Assembly: GCA_029261135.1 (NCBI GenBank)
Contig: JAJDBX010000058.1
Coordinates: 1 to 45,548, forward strand
DNA length: 45,548 nucleotides
Source: Nitrospirota bacterium
GTDB taxonomy: Bacteria > Nitrospirota > Nitrospiria > SBBL01 > JAADHI01
Reading direction: 5' to 3'
This document shows positions 32,077 to 45,548 of this stretch, in pieces. The stretch's first letter is position 1; each line of letters begins with the position of its first letter. The notes below the pieces were generated by a model. The model did no database searches. It was not told the DNA's origin and saw only the letters and a program-made list of their open reading frames with translations. Made by a program: the position numbers and the translations under genes.

Positions 32077-33303
32077 TCAGGCCGCCTTATCCATCCCTTT
32101 AAAGCTTTGGTTGGCCCAATTCAGGGCTTGCATGTAAAGTTCAGAGACCCCTTCATCATCGATACGAAGCTTCTCATTGAGCTCAGGGATGGCCGTCCAG
32201 TTCCCTTGTTCGTAGGCAAGAACAAGATAGTAGATATCTCTAAACAAGCCTTCTTTCCCAAGGAGCGCATCTTTGATTGCTTCTTCAATCGGAATTTTTT
32301 GCAATACCTCACCAATAGGCATGTCCATAATCCCATCAATCAGAGAAAACATTCCCATCAAAAAAAGATCCTGAGAACGCGCGCTGAGCCTGAGCTTTGT
32401 CGCCAGTGACTCACAAAATTTGGCACGAACAATGGCTTGCACCACCACTTCATCTGCCTCAGAGTCGGCCATGCTGGCCAAGGCCATGAGTGAGGTCCAT
32501 TTCTTCACCTCCCTTTCACCCAAGAGAACCAGGGCATGGCCAATAGATGAAATTTTGACTTGCCAGCCAAAAAAAGCAGAATTGATGTAACGAAGCAGTT
32601 TATAGGAAAGAGACAATTCTCGTTTGATGATGTCTTCTAAACCCTGATAATTTAACTCAGGTCGCTGCACTTCTTGAAGGATTTGCATGTAGTGGAGTTT
32701 AAAACTGGGGATGTCTTTACTCGTCATGATCGTGGGCTTGCTAAAATAATACCCTTGAAAATAGGTATAGCCCATCTCTCTCGCCTCTTGATACACTTCC
32801 CAGGTTTCTACTTTTTCGGCCAACATTTCAATACCTTTTGGAATGAATATCTCAGCCATTTCTTTCTGCTCTTCTTTGTTGGAGAGCAGAAAATCAACCT
32901 TTACAATACTGGCCAAATCGAGAAAGGGTTCATACTTTTTTTCATAGACAAAATCATCGAGGGCAATCATGTATCCTGCCTCTTTAAGGTTTTGACAGGC
33001 CGCGAGGGTTTCCGGGTCGGGGTCGATATTCTCGAGTAATTCGATGACCGTCTGCTCCTTAGGCAGCATGGCACAATACTCTTCAATTAAGGTCTCTCGC
33101 GTACAATTAAAAAAGGCTTTTTTCCCGGCGGTCAGCACGTCGAATCCATGAACCAACACGCTGTCTCCAATGACTTTTGAAGAGGCCTGGTCAAGGTTGG
33201 AGCCATTAAAAAAATTATCCATCCCGGAACGAAAGAGAAGCTCATAGGCATACACTTCTTGTTTTTTATTGAAAATCGGTTGTCGGGCAATAAAGGTATC
33301 CAT
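32077..33303 (-). CDS. EAL-HDOD domain signalling protein (probably non-catalytic EAL)
   Basis: A 408-residue cytoplasmic protein of the YuxH/CdgJ type. The N-terminal EAL-like domain (about residues 1-200) starts MDTFIARQPIFNKKQEVYAYELLFRSG. The EAL motif itself reads YELLF, and the metal- and catalysis-related residues are not preserved in the usual order, although FQGYYFSKP is. The C-terminal HDOD domain (about residues 200-390) includes ELSLSYKLLRYINSAFF and SSIGHALVLLGEREVKKW. Such proteins often act in motility or biofilm control without hydrolysing c-di-GMP. It stands alone, with about 140 and 125 bases free on either side. Confidence 0.88.
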   Translation of the reverse strand: MDTFIARQPIFNKKQEVYAYELLFRSGMDNFFNGSNLDQASSKVIGDSVLVHGFDVLTAGKKAFFNCTRETLIEEYCAMLPKEQTVIELLENIDPDPETLAACQNLKEAGYMIALDDFVYEKKYEPFLDLASIVKVDFLLSNKEEQKEMAEIFIPKGIEMLAEKVETWEVYQEAREMGYTYFQGYYFSKPTIMTSKDIPSFKLHYMQILQEVQRPELNYQGLEDIIKRELSLSYKLLRYINSAFFGWQVKISSIGHALVLLGEREVKKWTSLMALASMADSEADEVVVQAIVRAKFCESLATKLRLSARSQDLFLMGMFSLIDGIMDMPIGEVLQKIPIEEAIKDALLGKEGLFRDIYYLVLAYEQGNWTAIPELNEKLRIDDEGVSELYMQALNWANQSFKGMDKAA

Positions 33304-35978: not shown

Positions 35979-36536
35979 CTATCGTCCTCCTTCCATTTGG
36001 GCTCTAAATTCCCAGGGCGCAATCGGGTCTTCTCCCAGCCACAAACCCAGCTTGGCTTCTCTCGCCGCATTTTCTAAACGCCACAAAGAAAGATCTTCAG
36101 AATCATCCCGATACCACCAGGCAAACCCATTTTTTACAATTTCTCTATTTAAGCTCCGGCCATCTTCTAAGATCACCTCTGCAAGGAGTCTCCCGTCGGC
36201 ATCCATCCCTTTTAAATTGATCACAACCTTTTGTCCAAAAGAAATTTCTTCTGTAAAGTCTTTTGCTTGTTTGCTATAGCGTTGTTCTATGTCTGGGGTA
36301 TCAATCCCTTGCAGTCGCACCACAATGACCTGTCGGGATTTAAGTACTTTGATCATGTCACCCTCAAGCACAGCCACCACCTCTGCGATCATGGAAGATG
36401 GTGTTGCAAAACTCACTGAAGCAAAAAGAAGAAGAAAGAAGAAACTCAGCAAGGATGGTTGTAGAAGATGGTTTTGAGATGGCATCCCTTTTTTGATCAG
36501 ATGAGAAAAAAAACCGTTTAGTACTCGAAGATGCAT
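35979..36536 (-). CDS. Secreted staphylococcal-nuclease-like (thermonuclease family) protein
   Basis: A 185-residue protein. AAGGGA 8 bases before the ATG at 36536 supports that start; an ATG at 36485 is an alternative. A hydrophobic signal (SLLSFFFLLLFASVSFA) ends near residue 44. The SNase domain has VVAVLEGDMIKVL, VRLQGIDTPDIEQRYS, ADGRLLAEVIL and REAKLGLW. Compared with the classical enzyme, the Asp of the first motif, the Arg of VRL and the Asp of IDTP remain, and the later Arg of DGRLL remains. The glutamate after TP, the general base, is Asp. Activity may therefore be reduced or altered. Stand-alone gene. Confidence 0.87.
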   Translation of the reverse strand: MHLRVLNGFFSHLIKKGMPSQNHLLQPSLLSFFFLLLFASVSFATPSSMIAEVVAVLEGDMIKVLKSRQVIVVRLQGIDTPDIEQRYSKQAKDFTEEISFGQKVVINLKGMDADGRLLAEVILEDGRSLNREIVKNGFAWWYRDDSEDLSLWRLENAAREAKLGLWLGEDPIAPWEFRAQMEGGR

Positions 36537-37249: not shown

Positions 37250-37717
37250 TTAAGCTGCCTCCTTCAACACGGTTTTCATTTCGGTATAACCATGGACGTA
37301 TTCACTCTGATTTCGTACAAGGGCAAAGATAATCCGGAGAAGTTTTCTGGCGATCGCGACTAGGGCTTTCTTTTTTGCCATCCCCCGATCAAGATATTTC
37401 TGATAAGTCTGGCGCATAATGCCAACTGGGCATACCATATGGACAGCCATGCAATACAAAATCTTACTTAAGAAAGGTCGTCCTCTTTTGGAGATACGGC
37501 GATTCCCTTGATGTGAGCCGGAACTGATCTCAAAGAGGTCTAAGCCAGCAAGTTTCGTGACCTCTGATATGGTTTTATACTGTCTGAAATCACCGACTTC
37601 ACCAATCAGTCCAGCCGCCGTGACCTCCCCGATGCCTTTAATTGAAATGATGGATCGACTATAAGGAATCTGCTTACAACCTTCACTTTTTGGGAGGCTA
37701 GAAATAATCGGATTCAC
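37250..37717 (-). pseudogene. IS110-family transposase fragment (C-terminal part)
   Basis: A 155-codon frame with the Transposase_20 signature of IS110/IS116/IS902 elements. It reads SIISIKGIGEVTAAGLIGEVGDF, then AGLDLFEISSGSHQGNRRISKRGRPFLSKILYC, and a helix KKKALVAIARKLLRIIFALV. The N-terminal DEDD catalytic half, about 200 residues, is missing. The frame is cut at about 37717, beginning at a GTG with no RBS. It is a remnant and cannot transpose by itself. It lies between the TfoX relic and the higher-GC secretion gene block, so it may mark how that block arrived. Confidence 0.85.
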
Positions 37718-37851
37718 TTACCGATTTTTCACTTCAGAATTGTCGGAAATATTGATGGATATCACGTATAGGTATTTGACTCAGACTATTACCCATCACA
37801 GTTGATGAAATACCTTCCTCCGCTCAACATTCGGGTGTTTCTGGGGGTGCT

Positions 37852-38434
37852 TTACTGACAATCACTGCCCGCAGATGAGACCCTGGTCATCCGATAACCC
37901 GTGATCGTAATCCGGGACGATTCCGGGAGCGTAGTTGTCCACTGTCTCAAATGGTCACGACCGGCATCATCCAGGGTGGAAGAGGCGTGCTCAAAATAGA
38001 CAATTTCTTTACTGAAGGGCACATCTCTCCTGGACGGATCGGTCTTTTTATCTTGCACCCCTAAGCGGCAATCCCCCTCACCGCAGGGATAAATCGGATG
38101 CAGATAAGGGTGTGGATACAGGCGGAGGCGGCACCTGAAATCGCTTGTTTGGAAAAATAAACATCTGAAAGAGCTGATCCGGGGCTTGGGTGCTAAAGGG
38201 CACATCAATTACTCGAAGCTTCTTTGGCACCCCCTTTTCTTTCATGCCCTTCGTTCTTCCACTCGCTCCTATGCGGATGGATCGAAAAATATGCATCGGG
38301 AGCGGGTCGGAGGGGCTTATTTCTACCAAAGCCTTTGTTTCGGATGGTGAACGCATATCAGAGGGCATGCTTCCCCGCGAAGCGCAGGCCCCCATGCTCA
38401 GTACGGTTAGCAGAAGAACACACCATTTCAGCAT
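37852..38434 (-). pseudogene. Frameshifted lipoprotein with an OmpA-like C-terminus
   Basis: Two overlapping frames form one broken gene. The first starts at 38434 with a lipoprotein signal (MLKWCVLLLTVLSMGACAS, lipobox Cys at 17) and runs to VPPPPVSTPLSASDLS. Removing one T at about 38089 (TTT in GATTTATCC) continues it as YPCGEGDCRLGVQDKKTD, then SKEIVYFEHASSTLDDAGRDHLRQW and RITITGY, resembling an OmpA-like peptidoglycan-binding domain. Beyond that, other one-base shifts would extend it to a TGA at about 37824. Its ATG overlaps the secretin stop by one base (TGATG), so it belongs to the pilus/secretion operon. The OmpA-like identity is moderately sure, the frameshift is evident. Confidence 0.65.
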
Positions 38435-40623
38435 CAGCCTTCCTCTCCGGAAGGCCTCAGGACCTGCTCAAAAGGCCGGTCTGAAATCAGATAAATAAGG
38501 CCGCTGTCATCCCCGTCACCCTGCGCTAGAAGCCGGGGCCGCTCAAAACTCGCGGCCAGCCAGGAACCTTTCAGTGCCAGCGGATCTAAAACCACTACTT
38601 CAGTAGAGGGATTATAAAGACGTACTGCAGTCACATAAATGCCTCCCCGCCGCCAGCCTGCAAGCGGCTGGGCCACAATTTCTCCTTGAGCAATAAGGTC
38701 TGGAAAATTGTCCTTCGAAATCAAAACATCAAAAACCCCTTCGGGTGGAGCTTCCAAATCACCCCACATTTGCGAGGCGGCATAACGGGTCAGTGCGACA
38801 TAAGTCGCTTCGTCATCCCCTCGCCCCGCAGGCGGGACATTAGAATCTGTCCCCTCTATTGCCGCATCCAAGACCGTATCCCCCGATTCAAAATAGGGAT
38901 GCCGCGACAAGGTATCCACTCGACCCAGACTGCGTTTTTCCGCTTCTTCATCCGTGGTAAAGATGTGCGGCGTAATCAAAAGCACCAGCTCGGTTTTGGT
39001 CCGATCCCGCACCTCTCGGCGAAACAAGGCGCCGAGAATAGGAATATCGCCTAAGAACGGAACCTTCTGCATGCTCTCGCTCACACTGTTCCGGATCATC
39101 CCGCCGACCGCAACCGTCAAGCCGTCCTTGGCCAGCACGCTCGCTTCCAGGTTGGCTGTACTGACCGTATCAATCGGGAACTCCTGGATATTACCGGAGG
39201 CACCCGCAACGGGAATGACCGAGCCGCCGATCTGTACGGAGGACGTATCCTGCGCGATCGTCAGGCTGACAGTACGGTCTGCATTGATCCGGGGAAGAAT
39301 CTGAAGGGTATTCCCGATATCGCGTACTTCGGTTTGCGCAGAAATGGTCGTCACCGCGACGCCGGTGCTCCCCGTCGTGCTTTGGCTTGTGACGCCAGTC
39401 ACCAGCACACGTTCCTCCCCGATGAACAGCCGCGCGGGACTGTTGTTGGTCGCCAGCAACATCGGCGTCGCCAGGACATTGACCTTGTTGTCTCCCTCCA
39501 GCATCTGCAGCCTCAGACGGATCCGTTCGCTCAACGCCTGAAAAATAAAGGTGCCACCTTCAAGAGGGAAATTTCCCAGTCCCAGGGCCACATTCGGTCC
39601 GCGTTCATCCCCGATGCGAAGCGGGTTTCGTGCCTGACTGCTCGCAGGTCCGATAGCAGTCCCCGAACTGGTCAGGTCAAAATCAAAGACCGAGCGAAAG
39701 GAATTCCCCACTGTCAGTTCCAGAATCTTCATCTCAAGCAAAACCTGCGGCGGCCGCCGGTCCGTCTCGGTCACCAATCGAGCGATCTCTTTCAGCGCGG
39801 CCTTGTCACTCGTCCGGACAAACAGCAGATTGTGCAGTGGATTCACCGTAATAAAAATGGGAACCTCGCGCTGCGTCACATCGGCCAGCTTCTGCTCGGA
39901 AACCCGTTGCAGTGTGTCGTTACCGGCTCCCTCAGACAACACTGCGAGTTTATCCGCAGATAATTTAAGATTGTCTGTTCTGATCTGCCTTGAAGCGGAG
40001 CCGCCTCCGCCTGATCTGCCGCTGCCATCGCCTCTATCAGACGAACGCCCACCGCTATTGGTCTGACGCCGGTTCAAACCGGAAGAGCCCTGTCCGGACG
40101 CGCCGGGGCCCGATCCACCACCGAGGCTCGTCTCCCCCTCACCTTCAACATTGAGGGAAAGTTCAACCCGGTCGCCGAACAGGTTTTCGATCGTCTGCGC
40201 TGCGCTCCTGACGTTTTGATGACGCAGGGTAAAAACCTGCGTCATCTCATCCCGAAAGACAACGATGTCCTTTTGATATTCACCCGCCGTCATAATCCGG
40301 AAGATCCGGGTTTTTTCGTCGAAGCGATACCACAGCCCAGCCACCTTGCACAATGTATCCACGGCATCTTTAACCGACATGCCTTGAAGATAAAGCGTCA
40401 CCTTCTCTTTCCCCGCCTTGCGCGAGGAGACGATATTTACGCCTGAAAGCTCCGCCATCACCCGTACGGCATCGACGATTTCCGCATCCTTGAACTCCAG
40501 CTTTTCGATACGGAAATCCTGCCCGCTCCCGGCCCGGGCCGGATGAAATGCGGAACTTAAAATAAGCAGCGTGATGAACACACACATCACCAAGCCTCTC
40601 GAATATGGATTCCATTTTTTCAT
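38434..40623 (-). CDS. Secretin (PilQ/GspD/MshL-like) with an unusual C-terminal domain
   Basis: A 729-residue outer-membrane channel protein with a signal peptide (to about residue 31). The N0/N1-type domains (about 36-150) include EFKDAEIVDAVRVMAELSGVNIV. A Gly/Ser-rich linker with SGLNRRQTNSGGRSSDR lies near 170-220. An NPLHNLLFVRTSDKAALKEIA helper domain precedes the secretin core (about 300-580), with VLATPMLLATNNSPARLFIG and VPFLGDIPILGALFR as the usual signature. After the core come ~140 extra residues with LTRYAASQMWGDL, YVTAVRLYNPS and LKGSWLAASFERPRLLAQGD. These resemble the DUF3438/TIGR03749 proteins of integrating conjugative elements. It begins by overlapping the PilP-like gene (ATGA). 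Confidence 0.9.
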   Translation of the reverse strand: MKKWNPYSRGLVMCVFITLLILSSAFHPARAGSGQDFRIEKLEFKDAEIVDAVRVMAELSGVNIVSSRKAGKEKVTLYLQGMSVKDAVDTLCKVAGLWYRFDEKTRIFRIMTAGEYQKDIVVFRDEMTQVFTLRHQNVRSAAQTIENLFGDRVELSLNVEGEGETSLGGGSGPGASGQGSSGLNRRQTNSGGRSSDRGDGSGRSGGGGSASRQIRTDNLKLSADKLAVLSEGAGNDTLQRVSEQKLADVTQREVPIFITVNPLHNLLFVRTSDKAALKEIARLVTETDRRPPQVLLEMKILELTVGNSFRSVFDFDLTSSGTAIGPASSQARNPLRIGDERGPNVALGLGNFPLEGGTFIFQALSERIRLRLQMLEGDNKVNVLATPMLLATNNSPARLFIGEERVLVTGVTSQSTTGSTGVAVTTISAQTEVRDIGNTLQILPRINADRTVSLTIAQDTSSVQIGGSVIPVAGASGNIQEFPIDTVSTANLEASVLAKDGLTVAVGGMIRNSVSESMQKVPFLGDIPILGALFRREVRDRTKTELVLLITPHIFTTDEEAEKRSLGRVDTLSRHPYFESGDTVLDAAIEGTDSNVPPAGRGDDEATYVALTRYAASQMWGDLEAPPEGVFDVLISKDNFPDLIAQGEIVAQPLAGWRRGGIYVTAVRLYNPSTEVVVLDPLALKGSWLAASFERPRLLAQGDGDDSGLIYLISDRPFEQVLRPSGEEG

Positions 40624-41189
40624 CGTACGATGACCATCTCCCCTAATGTGCCAACTGTAACGGTTAATGTGAGATGATTCATCTCCAGGACTTTGATGAC
40701 CGTATTGCGTTCGGCGCCGTAAAGACTAATCGTATCCCCCTCCCGAACCAGGTAAACATCTCTTCCTGAAACATCAAGCAGGGCCAGCCGGGCGCCATCC
40801 GCGCCGCTGACAATACCGCGCAGCTTCAAGTCCGGCGTAGCAGAAGCCGCCGGAAGGGGCGTAAAATCAGGGCCGCTTTTCTGGCCGCGCGTCGCCGTCT
40901 GCTCCATCAGCCGCGTCGTTGCAAAAGGATCCCGATCAAGCTCAGGATGGGGGGGATCAGGCACAAACGATCTCGGAGCCCGTCGATTTTCGGCTGGGCG
41001 ATCTCCCGAAAATTTTTCCTCAAGCCGGTTTTTATGACGTCTCATGCTATCCAGCGCCGGGGTCAAGTCCTCCACCACATTCGTCAGTAAGTCCTCCAAA
41101 CCCTGTTTCTCCTGAGCATAGGCCGGAAGAAACGATGAAAAAACCATCCACAAAAAAACCCAAAAAATTACGATAATGCTTTGTTTCAT
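40620..41189 (-). CDS. PilP/GspC-like periplasmic protein
   Basis: A 189-residue protein from the ATG at 41189, with AAGGA about 9 bases upstream (a TTG 3 bases earlier is the longest start). A hydrophobic N-terminus (IIVIFWVFLWMVFSSFLPAYAQE) is a signal or anchor. A charged linker with PDPPHPELDRDPFA follows, and the last ~70 residues form a small beta domain: KLRGIVSGADGARLALLDVSG, YLVREGDTISLYG and VIKVLEMNHLTLTVT. This is the domain type by which PilP or GspC contacts the secretin. The stop overlaps the secretin start, consistent with partnership. Confidence 0.78.
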   Translation of the reverse strand: MKQSIIVIFWVFLWMVFSSFLPAYAQEKQGLEDLLTNVVEDLTPALDSMRRHKNRLEEKFSGDRPAENRRAPRSFVPDPPHPELDRDPFATTRLMEQTATRGQKSGPDFTPLPAASATPDLKLRGIVSGADGARLALLDVSGRDVYLVREGDTISLYGAERNTVIKVLEMNHLTLTVTVGTLGEMVIVR

Positions 41190-41239
41190 CAATACATTCC
41201 TTCCCCTGAGGAGTGGCCAACCACCCCAACTAAGACCCT

Positions 41240-42460
41240 TTATCCGGACAAAGACATGACCGCCTGGAAAAACGCGGCATAAACAAATCCCACCATGCCC
41301 CCGATGATTAAGATCAGGAGCGGTTCAATCGCCGCGCTCATACGCTTGATCCCCGCCTGTAGTTCCTTGTCATAATATGCCGCCAGTTCTTTCATGACTT
41401 CATCGAGCGCACCCGTCCGTTCACCCACTGCAGATAGATAAATCACCTCCTTTGGAATGACGGGAGACCGCGCTAAACTGCCCGACAAATCCTTCCCGTT
41501 CAAAATGGCTTCGGCCGCTTTTTCCACCGCACTCTGGATCACCCGATTCCCAATAACGCCTCCGCTGATACGAAGGGATGAGAGTAAATTCAAGCCGCTT
41601 TTCAGTAGGATGGCCAAAGACCAGGTTAGTTGCACCATGGCCGCCTTGGTAATGACCGTCCCAACGACCGGCAGAAACAGAAAGAAGCCGTCGAGGGACA
41701 GACGGCCTGCCTTTGTTTTATAAAACCGGATCAAAAAAACCACGAACAGCACAAATGCCAGTAGTAAGTACGGACCAGCCGTGATAAGCACGCTGGAAAC
41801 ATCTACGAGGCTTTGGGTCAGCGGCGGAAGGGTTCTGTTCGTTTTGGCGAAAAATTCAGAAAATTTGGGAATAATGACAAACATCAAGAAGATGGACACC
41901 CCGATGGCCGCAATCACCACAATCACCGGATAGATTAGACTGGTGATTAAATGTCGTTTCAAATCCGCCTTATGCTCCAGATGTTTAGCAATCCGATCCA
42001 TGATCACATCCAGCTCTCCGCTCGCTTCGGCACTGCGAATCAAGCAAACCCCCAGCGTGGGAAAGATCTTTGCCTCCTCCTGCATCGCGCCGGAAAAGGC
42101 ACTGCCACTCCGAATACGGCCACCTATCCGCTCAATCGCCGCAGCCAGACGGGGCGAGCGAGTCAATTCCCGGGAGGTGTCGAGACTTTGCAGCACCGTC
42201 AAACCCGAACGTAGCATCAAACCCATTTGCTGAAAGAAAAAAACCTGATCTTTAAGCCAAATCGGCATCAGGCCGCGGAAACTATACTGCTTGGGCCCCA
42301 CTTTCACGACCTGATCCACTTCGGCGGGATCTTCGATCCGCAGCACACGCAATGCCCGTCTGCGAAGCACAGCGGCCAGCATTCTCGGGTCAGCCGCTTC
42401 CAGACTGCCCGATTGTTCACTGCCCTGTTCATCCAAGGCCAAAAAACGGTAAAGCGGCAT
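41240..42460 (-). CDS. Type II secretion/type IV pilus inner-membrane platform protein (GspF/PilC family)
   Basis: A 406-residue polytopic protein with the two tandem T2SSF domains: QMGLMLRSGLTVLQSLDTSRE (about residues 75-95) and a second LTWSLAILLKSGLNLLSSLRIS (about residues 272-293). Transmembrane segments are near 168-190, 218-238 and 378-400. The N-terminal short domain is MPLYRFLALDEQGSEQSG. It is the platform that the assembly ATPase acts on. It is 14 bases after the ATPase gene and precedes the PilP-like gene by about 50 bases. Whether it is a pilus or a secretion-system component cannot be decided from this protein alone. Confidence 0.92.
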   Translation of the reverse strand: MPLYRFLALDEQGSEQSGSLEAADPRMLAAVLRRRALRVLRIEDPAEVDQVVKVGPKQYSFRGLMPIWLKDQVFFFQQMGLMLRSGLTVLQSLDTSRELTRSPRLAAAIERIGGRIRSGSAFSGAMQEEAKIFPTLGVCLIRSAEASGELDVIMDRIAKHLEHKADLKRHLITSLIYPVIVVIAAIGVSIFLMFVIIPKFSEFFAKTNRTLPPLTQSLVDVSSVLITAGPYLLLAFVLFVVFLIRFYKTKAGRLSLDGFFLFLPVVGTVITKAAMVQLTWSLAILLKSGLNLLSSLRISGGVIGNRVIQSAVEKAAEAILNGKDLSGSLARSPVIPKEVIYLSAVGERTGALDEVMKELAAYYDKELQAGIKRMSAAIEPLLILIIGGMVGFVYAAFFQAVMSLSG

Positions 42461-42474
42461 TTATTAAGACCTCG

Positions 42475-44121
42475 TCACGATGCTAATGGCTTCGGCGGGA
42501 CGGCCACCCGATTCAATTCTTCCAGGGCGGTCGAACCGGCCAATACTTTTTCACAGCCGTCAAACCAGAGCGTCGACAGACCTGCGGCCACTTCGGCAAG
42601 TTCCCCCTCACTTGCACCCTGCGCAATGCGATCAGAGACCTGCCGGTCAAGCCAAAGGGTCTCGAAGAGACCTAATCGGCCGCTATAACCAGTGCCCATG
42701 CAATTTGCACAACCCACCGGATCGAAAAGTGTGATTTGCCCCTCCCGTGCCAGCAGTGCTTTTTCTGCGTCTGTCGCCGGGCGGGCACGGCGGCAGCTTG
42801 TGCACAGTTGCCGGACCAAACGTTGCGCGACCACCGCCAAGAGCGTCGCCGCAATCAAATAACGCTCGGCGCCGATATCCGACAGCCGTGTTACAGCAGA
42901 AACGGCATCATTCGTATGCAGCGTGGAAAAAACAAGGTGACCGGTCATTGCCGCCTTAAGCGCCACACTGGCCGTCTCGGCATCGCGAATCTCACCCACC
43001 ATCAACACATCGGGGTCATGGCGCAGCAGGGAACGTAAGGCGGACGAAAAACTCACTTTACCTGAAACCTGTATCTGGGACAGCCCGTCAATAAGATGCT
43101 CCACCGGATCTTCCACCGTCATAATATTGCAATCGGGGTCATTAATTTCATTCAATGCGGCGTAGAGCGTCGTACTCTTGCCACTCCCGGTCGGGCCGGT
43201 CAGCAGAATCATCCCGTAAGGCCGTTTGATGACCTCGCGAAACTGCAGCAAACGCGTCTTTGACAAGCCCAGACCCTGCAAACTCAGGTCTTCCGCCCCC
43301 TGGCCCATGATCCTTAAGGTTGCCCGTTCACCGAAACGGGTCGGTATCGTCGCCACACGAATATCCAGATCTCTGGCGGCTGGCGGCGGCAGATGATAGG
43401 TAATGCCGCCGTCCTGCGGTTCGCGCTGTTCGGAAATATCCAGTCCGGAGAGGACTTTAACCCGGCTGATGAGACTCTGCCCCTCCTGTGTGCTGAATTC
43501 AGCGGGATAATCCTGCAGCCGCCCGTCAACACGCAGACGCACCCGGAGTCCATTCGCATGGGGTTCAAAATGGATATCGGTCGCGCGATTCAGGTAGGCC
43601 TGCTTGAAAATGCGATCCAGTTCGACAACCGATTCGGATGTGCCGAAATCGACCAAATCGGGATCCCCGACCGGGGGTTTTAACAAACGGCCCGTTTCAC
43701 GGATGGCGGCTTTCATCGCCTCCGGATCAGCCAGGGCCAAAAGGATTGGACGGCCCAGGATACGCCGCAACATATCGAGCGAGATCTGGTCGTCCGGATT
43801 GTCGGTTGCAACGAGAATCTTTCCCTCCTGCTCGGAAATCGGCAGCAAGGCTCGGCGGTAGAGCAGGGCGTCCGGGACTTTTGCCAGAAGTGAAGGATCG
43901 GCCTGAAGCGCGCGCGGCGCAATGTAGGGCAGACCGCGCACATCGGCCAAAGCCCGATAGAGCGCTGAGACCGGAAAGCGGCCATGATGGGTGACCGCAT
44001 CAAGCAGATCAATGCGTTCACGACGGGCCTTCACCTGCAAGCGCGCAAGCGTCTCGGCATCAATCATCCCGTTTTCCACCGCCGCGCTAATCAGCATACT
44101 CGGCTTAATTGGTATCCCCAT
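42475..44121 (-). CDS. GspE/PilB-family assembly ATPase
   Basis: A 548-residue ATPase with an N-terminal MshEN/GspE-N domain (about residues 1-150) and the RecA-like core. Walker A is LTGPTGSGKSTTLYAALNE with Lys315, the Asp box is MTVEDPVEHLIDG, and Walker B is PDVLMVGEIRDAETA. A tetracysteine zinc motif is present (CTSCRRARP later VGCANCMGTG). These mark a polymerising PilB/GspE and not a retraction ATPase. It lies 9 bases after the pilT-like gene, preceded by AAAGGG. Two ATPases of opposite type in one operon suggests a retractable pilus. Confidence 0.93.
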   Translation of the reverse strand: MGIPIKPSMLISAAVENGMIDAETLARLQVKARRERIDLLDAVTHHGRFPVSALYRALADVRGLPYIAPRALQADPSLLAKVPDALLYRRALLPISEQEGKILVATDNPDDQISLDMLRRILGRPILLALADPEAMKAAIRETGRLLKPPVGDPDLVDFGTSESVVELDRIFKQAYLNRATDIHFEPHANGLRVRLRVDGRLQDYPAEFSTQEGQSLISRVKVLSGLDISEQREPQDGGITYHLPPPAARDLDIRVATIPTRFGERATLRIMGQGAEDLSLQGLGLSKTRLLQFREVIKRPYGMILLTGPTGSGKSTTLYAALNEINDPDCNIMTVEDPVEHLIDGLSQIQVSGKVSFSSALRSLLRHDPDVLMVGEIRDAETASVALKAAMTGHLVFSTLHTNDAVSAVTRLSDIGAERYLIAATLLAVVAQRLVRQLCTSCRRARPATDAEKALLAREGQITLFDPVGCANCMGTGYSGRLGLFETLWLDRQVSDRIAQGASEGELAEVAAGLSTLWFDGCEKVLAGSTALEELNRVAVPPKPLAS

Positions 44122-44130
44122 TAAAACCCT

Positions 44131-45219
44131 TTATGGCCGGTGTAAGAGTTCATCAAAAAGCTTCGGGTCTCTCGCCATGCGCCGCGCCTGCTCGGCATCC
44201 ACCAAACGACGGCGCACGACTTCCGCCAAGGCCGCGTCGAGCGTCTGCATCCCCAGGGCCTGTCCCGACTCCATCGCGGACACCAATTGCTGCGACTTGC
44301 CGTTTCGGATCAGGTGGGCCACGGCGGGGGTTCCCATCAATATTTCAACTACAGGGACACGACCCTTGCCGTCCGCAGTCGGGACCAGATGCTGCGCCAC
44401 CACCGCCCGAAGTACCATCGATAACTGCTGACGCACCGCCTCCTGCTCGTTTCCGGGAAAGCCCCCGACAAAACGCTCCAGCACACCGACCGCATCGCCC
44501 GTATGGAGTGTGGAAAAGACCAGATGCCCCGTCTCGGCCGCCATCAAAGCCGCCCGCATCGTTTCGAGATCGCGCATTTCGCCGACTAAGATCACGTCCG
44601 GGTCTTCACGCATGGCGGCACGCACCGCGCTGGAAAAATCGGGCACATCTGTATGCAGCTCACGCTGATGCACCATGCTCAAGTGGTTCCGGTGAATCGT
44701 TTCGACCGGATCTTCGATGGTCAGGATATGACAGTTGCGCTGCAGATTAATGAGATGCAGCATCGCAGTTAAAGTCGTGCTCTTACCGCTGCCCGTCGGA
44801 CCCGTCACCAGAACCAGTCCATGGTGCGAACGGGTCAGATCCTCCAGGGCAGGGGGCAGCCCAAGGTCTTTCAGCGTGTGAAACGCAGTGTCGAGTCGAC
44901 GAATCGCAAGCGCGGCCTGCCCCCGCTCATAATAGGCGTTGATGCGAAAACGCTCCCCCAGAGCGAGAGAATACCCGATATCGATCGAACGCTGGCGCTG
45001 AAACAGCTCATATTGCGCGTCATTCACGACGGCCCGCACCAGAGCAACCACCTCTTCCGGTGTAAGCGGGTTTTCATCAAGCGGCCGCAGTTTCCCGTGC
45101 AGACGCAGTGTCGGCGGGCAATCCACTGAAAGATGCAGGTCGGAGGCGCCTGCCGCCGCACAGCGGCTCAGCAATGTCTCCAGGTGATGGCGATGATTCA
45201 AATCTCTTGCTTCGTTCAC
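44131..45219 (-). CDS. PilT-family retraction ATPase
   Basis: A 362-residue ATPase. The N-terminal SDLHLSVDCPPTLRLHGKL is typical of PilT. The Walker A motif is VTGPTGSGKSTTLTAML with Lys146, the Asp box is LTIEDPVETIHRN, and Walker B is PDVILVGEMRDLETMRAAL. The HLVFSTLHTGDAV segment is conserved. It lacks the zinc motif of PilB. The start is a GTG overlapping the upstream PilO-like stop (GTGA). In pili, PilT depolymerises the fibre, so the cluster is more pilus-like than a pure type II secretion operon. Confidence 0.93.
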   Translation of the reverse strand: MNEARDLNHRHHLETLLSRCAAAGASDLHLSVDCPPTLRLHGKLRPLDENPLTPEEVVALVRAVVNDAQYELFQRQRSIDIGYSLALGERFRINAYYERGQAALAIRRLDTAFHTLKDLGLPPALEDLTRSHHGLVLVTGPTGSGKSTTLTAMLHLINLQRNCHILTIEDPVETIHRNHLSMVHQRELHTDVPDFSSAVRAAMREDPDVILVGEMRDLETMRAALMAAETGHLVFSTLHTGDAVGVLERFVGGFPGNEQEAVRQQLSMVLRAVVAQHLVPTADGKGRVPVVEILMGTPAVAHLIRNGKSQQLVSAMESGQALGMQTLDAALAEVVRRRLVDAEQARRMARDPKLFDELLHRP

Positions 45220-45548
45220 AACGCCACCACGATTTCGGCGTTTAAATGCGCGCTGCCGCCGCCAGGAGGCAGCTTAGACATCGTCGTGAACCCGAACTGC
45301 AGTACCACCACTTGGCGGGTCAACTCAGCGCTTCCTTCAATAAAACGGCGCAAACTCTGATAGTTTCCCTCAAGGCGCAAACGTTTCAAAGGACGTAAAA
45401 ACCCTCCGATCTTGAAACGGGTCACCATGTTTTCAGGCAGGCCTGAAGTCGCGGATCTCGCTCCTGAACCGCCTTCACTTTCAAAGGGGAGGGTCTCTCG
45501 AATCGTCACACCGCTTGCCCGTGCGAGCGTCGAGATATCGACCATCAG
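45216..45548 (-). CDS. PilO/GspM-like protein, partial (continues beyond the window)
   Basis: The reading frame is open to the window edge, so its true N-terminus lies outside. The visible 110 residues end with LRLEGNYQSLRRFIEGSAELTRQVVVLQFGF and a strand AEIVVAL, the pattern of the PilO C-terminal ferredoxin-like domain that joins PilN and PilP in the alignment subcomplex. A small Ser/Gly-rich stretch occurs near its middle. Its position upstream of pilT and four pilus-type genes supports the call, but only a short C-terminal piece is seen. Confidence 0.6.
   Translation of the reverse strand: MMVDISTLARASGVTIRETLPFESEGGSGARSATSGLPENMVTRFKIGGFLRPLKRLRLEGNYQSLRRFIEGSAELTRQVVVLQFGFTTMSKLPPGGGSAHLNAEIVVAL

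What the first reader, a model, noticed from the sequence alone, without database searches (positions are those of the whole stretch)
38434..40623. Secretin fused to a DUF3438/TIGR03749-like conjugative-element domain
After a complete secretin core the protein continues ~140 residues with LTRYAASQMWGDL, YVTAVRLYNPS, DPLALKGSWLAASFERPRLL and LIYLISDRPFEQVL. These match, in order, the pattern I recall for the integrating conjugative element proteins of the PFL_4704 type. The following gene is a lipoprotein, as in those clusters. A single chain joining a pilus secretin to this conjugation-related domain would link an outer-membrane pilus channel with DNA-transfer machinery; I know of no such described fusion.
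Basis: partly seen in the sequence, partly recalled or inferred. Interest (0 to 1): 0.7.

Follow-up and report, generated by a model that had tools for sequence, protein, structure and literature searches.

The report
Pilus secretin with TraK-like tail domain
An outer-membrane pore of a type IV pilus machine carries, fused to its end, the ring-forming tail domain of a protein (TraK) otherwise known from DNA-conjugation machines; the fusion is real and conserved in two species, but the conjugation genes tested for are absent from the genome, so the domain was probably borrowed to anchor the pilus pore to the cell envelope.

Summary
The 729-aa ORF at 38434-40623 (minus strand) is a type IV pilus/type II-like secretin whose last ~120 residues match DUF3438 (E 3.6e-20) and TIGR03749 (E 5e-25), but only the C-terminal half of that family. 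The domain is a TraK-type C-terminal domain: AlphaFold models from 2-3 sequences find F-plasmid TraK as top PDB match (prob 1.00, TM 0.60, rmsd 2.9 A), and MPF_G operons align gene for gene with F traE-K-B-V-C. The fusion is no artefact: a second species (L036) has it full length, with dN/dS 0.25 in the domain at dS 0.9. An orthologue in the same family lacks it, as do the other class genomes searched (270) and a 396-genome phylum sample. Downstream is a lipoprotein gene, in L036 fused to an OmpA-type peptidoglycan-binding domain; in the window the OmpA part is frameshifted and truncated beside an IS110 remnant. No unfused TIGR03749, TIGR03744 or TIGR03752 was found in the genome, so the DNA-transfer link is not supported. 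Best reading: the TraK tail replaces the pilotin-binding tail and docks the secretin to its own lipoprotein. Domain identity is near certain; docking is inferred.

The parts
38434..40623 (-). Fusion gene: type IV pilus/type II-like secretin (729 aa) with C-terminal TraK/DUF3438 domain
   Evidence: ORF and HMM hits; full-length homologue L036:6001-8181
40144..40533 (-). Secretin periplasmic N-domains (residues ~31-160)
   Evidence: sub-threshold Secretin_N hit at 128-175; TIGR02517 alignment from residue 126; dN/dS 0.065 vs L036
38959..39501 (-). Secretin core (PF00263, residues 375-555)
   Evidence: dN/dS 0.040 for residues 251-562
38812..38937 (-). Junction / linker (residues 563-604): end of secretin homology (LSRHPY..GD..LD, shared with the orthologue without fusion) followed by a variable linker
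   Evidence: alignment with L003; dN/dS 0.55 vs L036
38449..38811 (-). Fused TraK C-terminal-like domain (DUF3438/TIGR03749 C-terminal half, residues ~605-725)
   Evidence: fold match to TraK; dN/dS 0.25
38078..38434 (-). Lipoprotein gene (lipobox LSMGAC), start overlaps the secretin stop; candidate docking partner; here it stops early, without its OmpA half
   Evidence: intact 256-aa homologue L036:8181-8951 with OmpA domain; dN/dS 0.39 (mature part 0.32)
37852..38208 (-). Frame holding the decayed OmpA-like half of the lipoprotein gene (early stop, frameshifts and 3' truncation relative to L036)
   Evidence: (DNA alignment)
37250..37717 (-). IS110 transposase remnant at the broken end of the operon
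   Evidence: PF02371 E 7.7e-19; other copies 80-82% identical in the same genome
40620..41192 (-). GspC/PilP-like protein gene of the same operon
   Evidence: weak T2SSC/PilP hits; conserved position in L036 and L003
41240..42460 (-). PilC/GspF platform protein
   Evidence: PF00482 E 1.2e-52
42475..44121 (-). PilB/GspE assembly ATPase with MshEN domain
   Evidence: PF00437 E 1.3e-116, PF05157 E 4.5e-16
44131..45219 (-). PilT/PilU-family retraction ATPase
   Evidence: TIGR01420 427 bits, above cut-off
45216..45545 (-). PilO-like gene, cut by the contig end (complete, 218 aa, in L036)

Best explanation
It is the outer-membrane secretin of a probably acquired type IV pilus operon whose C-terminal tail has been replaced by the C-terminal domain of a TraK/VirB9-type protein, the outer-ring subunit of conjugative type IV secretion core complexes. 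SHOWN: the fusion, its conservation in two species, the identity and predicted fold of the domain, the adjacent lipoprotein gene, the absence of the tested conjugation genes. INFERRED: in F-type systems the TraK C-terminal domain clamps the C-terminal hairpin of the lipoprotein TraV; here the fused domain does the same with the lipoprotein encoded next to it. It would thus take the place of the S-domain/pilotin pair: the lipoprotein pilots secretin subunits to the outer membrane, holds them as a peripheral ring around the pore, and in the complete version (L036) ties the ring to peptidoglycan through an OmpA domain. In the window species the OmpA half has been lost. The source was most likely a TIGR03749 gene of an MPF_G-type conjugative element; the nearest relatives sampled are in a genome of the same class and in Methylophaga.
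For: Domain: (hhalign 99.6%, 117 columns). Fold: a 2-row and a 3-row AlphaFold model both have F-plasmid TraK as best PDB hit (7spb_C1 prob 0.99, then 1.00, E 5.7e-4, TM 0.60, rmsd 2.9 A; 7oko_3 third, then second with prob 1.00) among 350,542 chains; chains identified as TraK. Two TIGR03749 proteins weakly hit Pfam TraK_C over the same region (E 0.03 and 0.11). Synteny PFL_4703-TIGR03749-TIGR03752-TIGR03751-ATPase equals F traE-K-B-V-C. TraK-CT binds TraV-CT in the F core complex (PMC8770708). Fusion conserved in L036 (78% aa identity, dN/dS 0.25 in the domain, in-frame indels). Lipoprotein gene directly downstream in both; OmpA domain in L036 (PF00691 E 2.5e-6, above gathering). Lipoprotein N-half under constraint (dN/dS 0.39, mature 0.32). 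Pilotin-dependent secretins bind a lipoprotein through their C-terminal S-domain (PMC6532946).
Against: No interaction was tested; complexes could not be predicted. The lipoprotein is not recognisably TraV/TIGR03751: no HMM hit and only a weak local hhalign match (P 0.0029, prob 11%; mature part reached by 5 of 300 shuffles). However, F TraV itself shows no sequence match to TIGR03751 either, so the test is insensitive. In the window species the partner gene is damaged. The AlphaFold models have modest confidence (pLDDT 53 and 65). Only two examples of the fusion are known, one on a contig of doubtful species assignment.
Confidence: 0.55

Rival explanations
1. The TraK-like tail works on its own as an extra ring or dimerising scaffold around the secretin (as TraK-CT dimers do in the F outer ring), or as a gate or pilus-guiding collar, without a dedicated lipoprotein partner.
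For: TraK-CT domains pack as dimers in the F outer ring complex (PMC8770708). The window species keeps the tail although the partner gene has lost its OmpA half.
Against: In F the TraK-CT dimer encloses two TraV-CT domains; a lipoprotein gene overlaps the end of the fusion gene and is conserved with it in both species.
Confidence: 0.22
2. The tail is a neutral leftover: an element inserted next to the operon and a deletion joined half a TIGR03749 gene in frame to the secretin; it has no role.
For: Only half of the family is present; the domain is absent from the orthologue; the operon end carries an IS110 remnant and a decayed gene; the domain evolves faster than the secretin core (dN/dS 0.25 vs 0.04).
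Against: Open reading frame and dN/dS 0.25 kept across dS about 0.9; residues invariant among the sampled family members are kept; a useless tail would be expected to be lost by a stop codon.
Confidence: 0.13
3. The chimera couples the pilus pore to DNA transfer (conjugation, DNA release or uptake).
For: Family membership of the tail in TIGR03749.
Against: No other TIGR03749, no TIGR03744 ATPase and no TIGR03752 in the genome; the tail is the envelope-ring part of TraK. In F, delta-traK and other outer-ring mutations mainly affect pilus production, not substrate transfer (PMC8770708). Relaxase, TraD and competence genes were not searched.
Confidence: 0.05
4. Assembly or binning artefact joining two unrelated genes.
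For: The operon is much richer in G+C (about 56%) than the rest of the contig (45%), with an IS remnant at the boundary.
Against: The G+C change is at about 37.8 kb, outside the fusion gene; an independent 10-kb contig has the same fusion at 78% identity; the other IS110 copies in the genome are only 80-82% identical, so they would not easily mislead an assembler. Which organism owns the operon stays less certain than the fusion itself.
Confidence: 0.02

Closest known systems
TraK of the F-plasmid type IV secretion system (VirB9-like; PDB 7SPB, 7OKO)
   Same: C-terminal domain: best PDB fold match, same order of one long helix and a beta-sandwich; lipoprotein gene nearby
   Different: No TraK N-terminal domain; instead joined to a complete secretin; no TraB/VirB10-like or TraC-like gene found in the genome
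TIGR03749 / DUF3438 (PFL_4704 family) of MPF_G integrative conjugative elements
   Same: Sequence homology over the C-terminal ~120 residues, 27-39% identity
   Different: N-terminal half missing; fused to a secretin; sits in a pilus operon
GspD/PilQ/MshL secretins with S-domain and pilotin lipoprotein (PulD-PulS, EpsD-EpsS)
   Same: Secretin core, operon of PilT-PilB-PilC-PilP genes, C-terminal tail position, lipoprotein gene next door
   Different: Tail is a TraK-type sandwich rather than an S-domain helix; the lipoprotein matched no named lipoprotein family apart from, in L036, an OmpA domain
Dot/Icm outer-membrane cap of Legionella (DotH with DotK and Lpg0657; PMC7511231)
   Same: A VirB9-like C-terminal domain in one complex with proteins of peptidoglycan-binding (OmpA-like) fold
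   Different: Separate proteins of a type IV secretion system; no secretin pore

Membership tests
TIGR03749 / DUF3438 (PFL_4704) | Significant match to the family model | tested here: met
   PF11920 72.9 bits over gathering 25; TIGR03749 E 5e-25
TIGR03749 / DUF3438 (PFL_4704) | Full-length match above the curated TIGR03749 cut-off (138.8 bits) | tested here: not met
   88.5 bits, profile 90-258 of 259 for the whole protein and 138-258 for the tail alone; the N-terminal domain is absent
TIGR03749 / DUF3438 (PFL_4704) | Lies in a conjugation cluster (PFL_4703, TIGR03752, TIGR03751, TraC-like ATPase) | tested here: not met
   Neighbours are pilus genes; no TIGR03744/TIGR03752 in the genome
TraK/VirB9-like C-terminal domain | TraK-CT fold (helix plus beta-sandwich) | tested here: met
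   Top PDB match is TraK in two models of modest confidence (pLDDT 53 and 65), best E 5.7e-4, prob 1.00
TraK/VirB9-like C-terminal domain | Sequence match to Pfam TraK_C (PF23536) | tested here: inconclusive
   Only two of eight TIGR03749 proteins hit it, below cut-off (E 0.03, 0.11); the fused tail itself does not
TraK/VirB9-like C-terminal domain | Binds a VirB7/TraV-type lipoprotein | not testable with these tools
   Needs complex prediction or a binding assay
Secretin of type IV pilus / type II secretion | Secretin core domain and pilus/secretion operon | tested here: met
   PF00263 E 4e-38; PilT above cut-off, PilB, PilC
Secretin of type IV pilus / type II secretion | Above a curated cut-off of one named secretin model (GspD, PilQ, MshL) | tested here: not met
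   Best GspD 190.9 of 351; PilQ 133 of 284; MshL 116 of 250
TIGR03751 conjugal transfer lipoprotein (proposed partner) | Match of the downstream lipoprotein to the family | tested here: inconclusive
   No HMM hit; weak local profile match at PDQ..MF.FPN vs PNP..MY.FPH
OmpA-like peptidoglycan-binding lipoprotein | OmpA domain above gathering score | tested here: met
   L036:8181-8951, PF00691 28.2 bits over 27.2; in the window the domain is frameshifted and truncated

The most novel reading that the evidence does not exclude
A hybrid outer-membrane machine: a type IV pilus secretin that has exchanged its pilotin tail for the outer-ring domain of a conjugative type IV secretion core complex and is held by a dedicated lipoprotein with a peptidoglycan-binding domain. 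This would show that the secretin-pilotin and VirB9-VirB7 anchoring modules can replace each other.
Probability: 0.45. Interest if true: 0.65.

Novelty: new variant of a known kind. Interest (0 to 1): 0.5.

Why it matters
Secretins (pili, type II and III secretion) and the VirB7-9-10 core of type IV secretion are regarded as separate ways of building a large pore in the outer membrane. A natural chimera in which the ring domain of one is grafted on the pore of the other suggests that the anchoring module is portable, and it gives a simple system in which to test what TraK/VirB9 C-terminal domains do apart from conjugation. It also gives the unnamed family DUF3438/TIGR03749 a structural identity (TraK).

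Tried and rejected
Scans of viral contigs with the tail domain (alignment A2 and the single protein) found nothing; a scan with the ICE family alignment gave only one contig, L069, with an unfused TIGR03749 cluster. A genome-contig scan with the tail alone found nothing. A profile of the tail family against PDB sequences gave no TraK (best E 0.4, unrelated), and F TraK alone did not align to the TIGR03749 profile: the sequences are too diverged and only the fold comparison shows the link. The lipoprotein was tested as TIGR03751 by HMM, hhalign and shuffles: inconclusive; TraV against TIGR03751 also failed. A plasmid search listed only conjugation-type TIGR03749 proteins or unannotated places, no annotated secretin. 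The idea that L036 shows the fusion in Hyphomicrobiales was considered and doubted: no other genome of that order sample (297) has it, and the tetranucleotide pattern of its contig correlates 0.67 with the window's pilus segment but 0.10-0.24 with three other contigs of that MAG.

Full report
WHAT IS THERE. The reading frame 38434-40623 (minus strand) encodes 729 residues: signal peptide, secretin N-domains, a Ser/Gly-rich linker (about residues 161-250), the secretin core (PF00263 375-555, E 4.4e-38) and a tail matching DUF3438 (606-725, E 3.6e-20) and TIGR03749 (E 5e-25). Only the C-terminal half of the family is present (profile 122-245 of 252), so the score is below the TIGR03749 full-length cut-off. 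Profile-profile comparison of the tail with eight true TIGR03749 proteins gives 99.6% probability over 117 columns. Upstream on the same strand are PilP/GspC-like, PilC, PilB, PilT and a PilO-like gene cut by the contig end; L036 has the same set complete, with one further gene in the position of PilN. This is a type IV pilus/type II-like operon.

IS IT REAL. A genome-contig scan with the secretin pair found L036 (contig JAJFHE010000012.1, labelled Hyphomicrobiales MAG OFTM97), which encodes the same fusion, 726 aa, 78% identical over its length, with the operon in the same order. Nei-Gojobori estimates: secretin core dN/dS 0.04, tail domain 0.25 (dS 0.90), junction 0.55. The tail is thus under clear purifying selection, weaker than the core. 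In the same family as the window genome, G005 (the same sequence as L043, OFTM244, Nitrospirota) has the orthologous operon, with a secretin 47-51% identical up to about residue 590, but it ends in a polar tail without the domain. The other orthologues returned by the scan (Planctomycetes, Methylotenera and others) gave no match to a profile of the family in six-frame translation. Across the class genomes searched (270) only the window genome has the fused domain; one other genome (G156) has an ordinary unfused TIGR03749 in a conjugation cluster (L032/L056). A phylum sample of 396 gives the same two.

WHAT THE TAIL IS. In the conjugation clusters the order PFL_4703, TIGR03749, TIGR03752, TIGR03751 lipoprotein, TraC-type ATPase matches F-plasmid traE, traK, traB, traV, traC. 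Two TIGR03749 proteins weakly hit Pfam TraK_C over the same stretch. AlphaFold2 models of the tail from two and three sequences reach only pLDDT 53 and 65, yet Foldseek ranks F-plasmid TraK first in both and, with the better model, first and second of the PDB: 7spb_C1 E 5.7e-4, probability 1.00, TM 0.60, rmsd 2.9 A; 7oko_3 probability 1.00, rmsd 3.3 A (chains identified as TraK). The tail is therefore a TraK/VirB9-type C-terminal domain. In the F core complex this domain (four strands and one helix) pairs with the C-terminal hairpin of the lipoprotein TraV to make the outer ring (PMC8770708). A FastTree tree of C-terminal domains places the two fusions together, next to the element from the same class and the Methylophaga elements (support 0.97), so capture from an MPF_G element is likely.

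THE PARTNER GENE. The next gene overlaps the secretin stop codon. In L036 it is one 256-aa lipoprotein with a C-terminal OmpA domain. In the window the lipoprotein half (118 aa) is open and moderately constrained (dN/dS 0.39; mature part 0.32), but it ends at an early stop and the OmpA half is frameshifted and truncated before an IS110 remnant. Both versions hold a short motif (PDQ..MF.FPN) resembling the core of TIGR03751 lipoproteins (PNP..MY.FPH), but the statistics are weak; since F TraV also fails against TIGR03751, sequence tests cannot decide. In Legionella's Dot/Icm cap a VirB9-like domain likewise occurs with proteins of peptidoglycan-binding fold (PMC7511231), although those authors doubt that these bind peptidoglycan.

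HOW IT PROBABLY WORKS. In pilotin-dependent secretins the C-terminal S-domain is bound by an outer-membrane lipoprotein that brings the subunits to the outer membrane (PMC6532946). The TraK-type tail sits in that place and belongs to a class of domains that bind lipoproteins. The most likely role is docking of the adjacent lipoprotein, giving outer-membrane targeting, a stabilising ring and, with the OmpA domain, attachment to the cell wall. The first part is shown, the docking is inferred. DNA transfer is unlikely: no other TIGR03749, no TIGR03744 and no TIGR03752 in the genome. Relaxases, coupling proteins and competence genes were not searched.

ORIGIN. The pilus operon is about 56% G+C against 45% for the rest of the contig, with the change at about 37.8 kb. 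Only G005 among the close relatives has a clear orthologue of this PilB (52% identical; the next best are about 41-46%), so the operon looks acquired. The rest of the contig belongs to the genus (a neighbouring 1228-aa protein has 61-63% orthologues in three same-genus genomes). The L036 contig looks misbinned.

VERDICT. The DNA-transfer reading is not supported. This is a new variant of a known kind: a secretin with a TraK-type anchoring tail. No published description was found in the open-access library searched; subscription papers and preprints are not covered.

Noticed in passing
window 37800-45548: Pilus operon is about 56% G+C while the rest of the contig is 45%: a probably acquired block ending at an IS110 remnant and at the contig end.
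   Followed up: partly
window 37852-38434: Lipoprotein-OmpA gene broken in this species by an early stop and frameshifts, and truncated; intact in L036.
   Followed up: yes
L036 1-9259 (contig JAJFHE010000012.1, also L075): 10-kb contig with the fusion assigned to a Hyphomicrobiales MAG but compositionally close to the window's pilus operon and unlike three other contigs of that MAG; probable misbinning.
   Followed up: partly
L056 4243-9753 (G156:C5:14000-33000): An MPF_G-type conjugation cluster (TIGR03749, VirB10-like, TIGR03751-like lipoprotein, ATPase) in a genome of the same class, the only unfused TIGR03749 hit in the 396-genome phylum sample.
   Followed up: partly
L033 8626-9396 (and other TIGR03749 loci): The unnamed family DUF3438/TIGR03749 appears to be the TraK/VirB9 protein of MPF_G systems, by synteny with F tra genes and by the fold of its C-terminal half.
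   Followed up: partly
window 35979-36536 (-): Staphylococcal-nuclease-like protein (PF00565, E 1.9e-20) with an N-terminal hydrophobic segment.
   Followed up: no
window 32077-33303 (-): Protein with EAL and HDOD domains (PF00563, PF08668).
   Followed up: no
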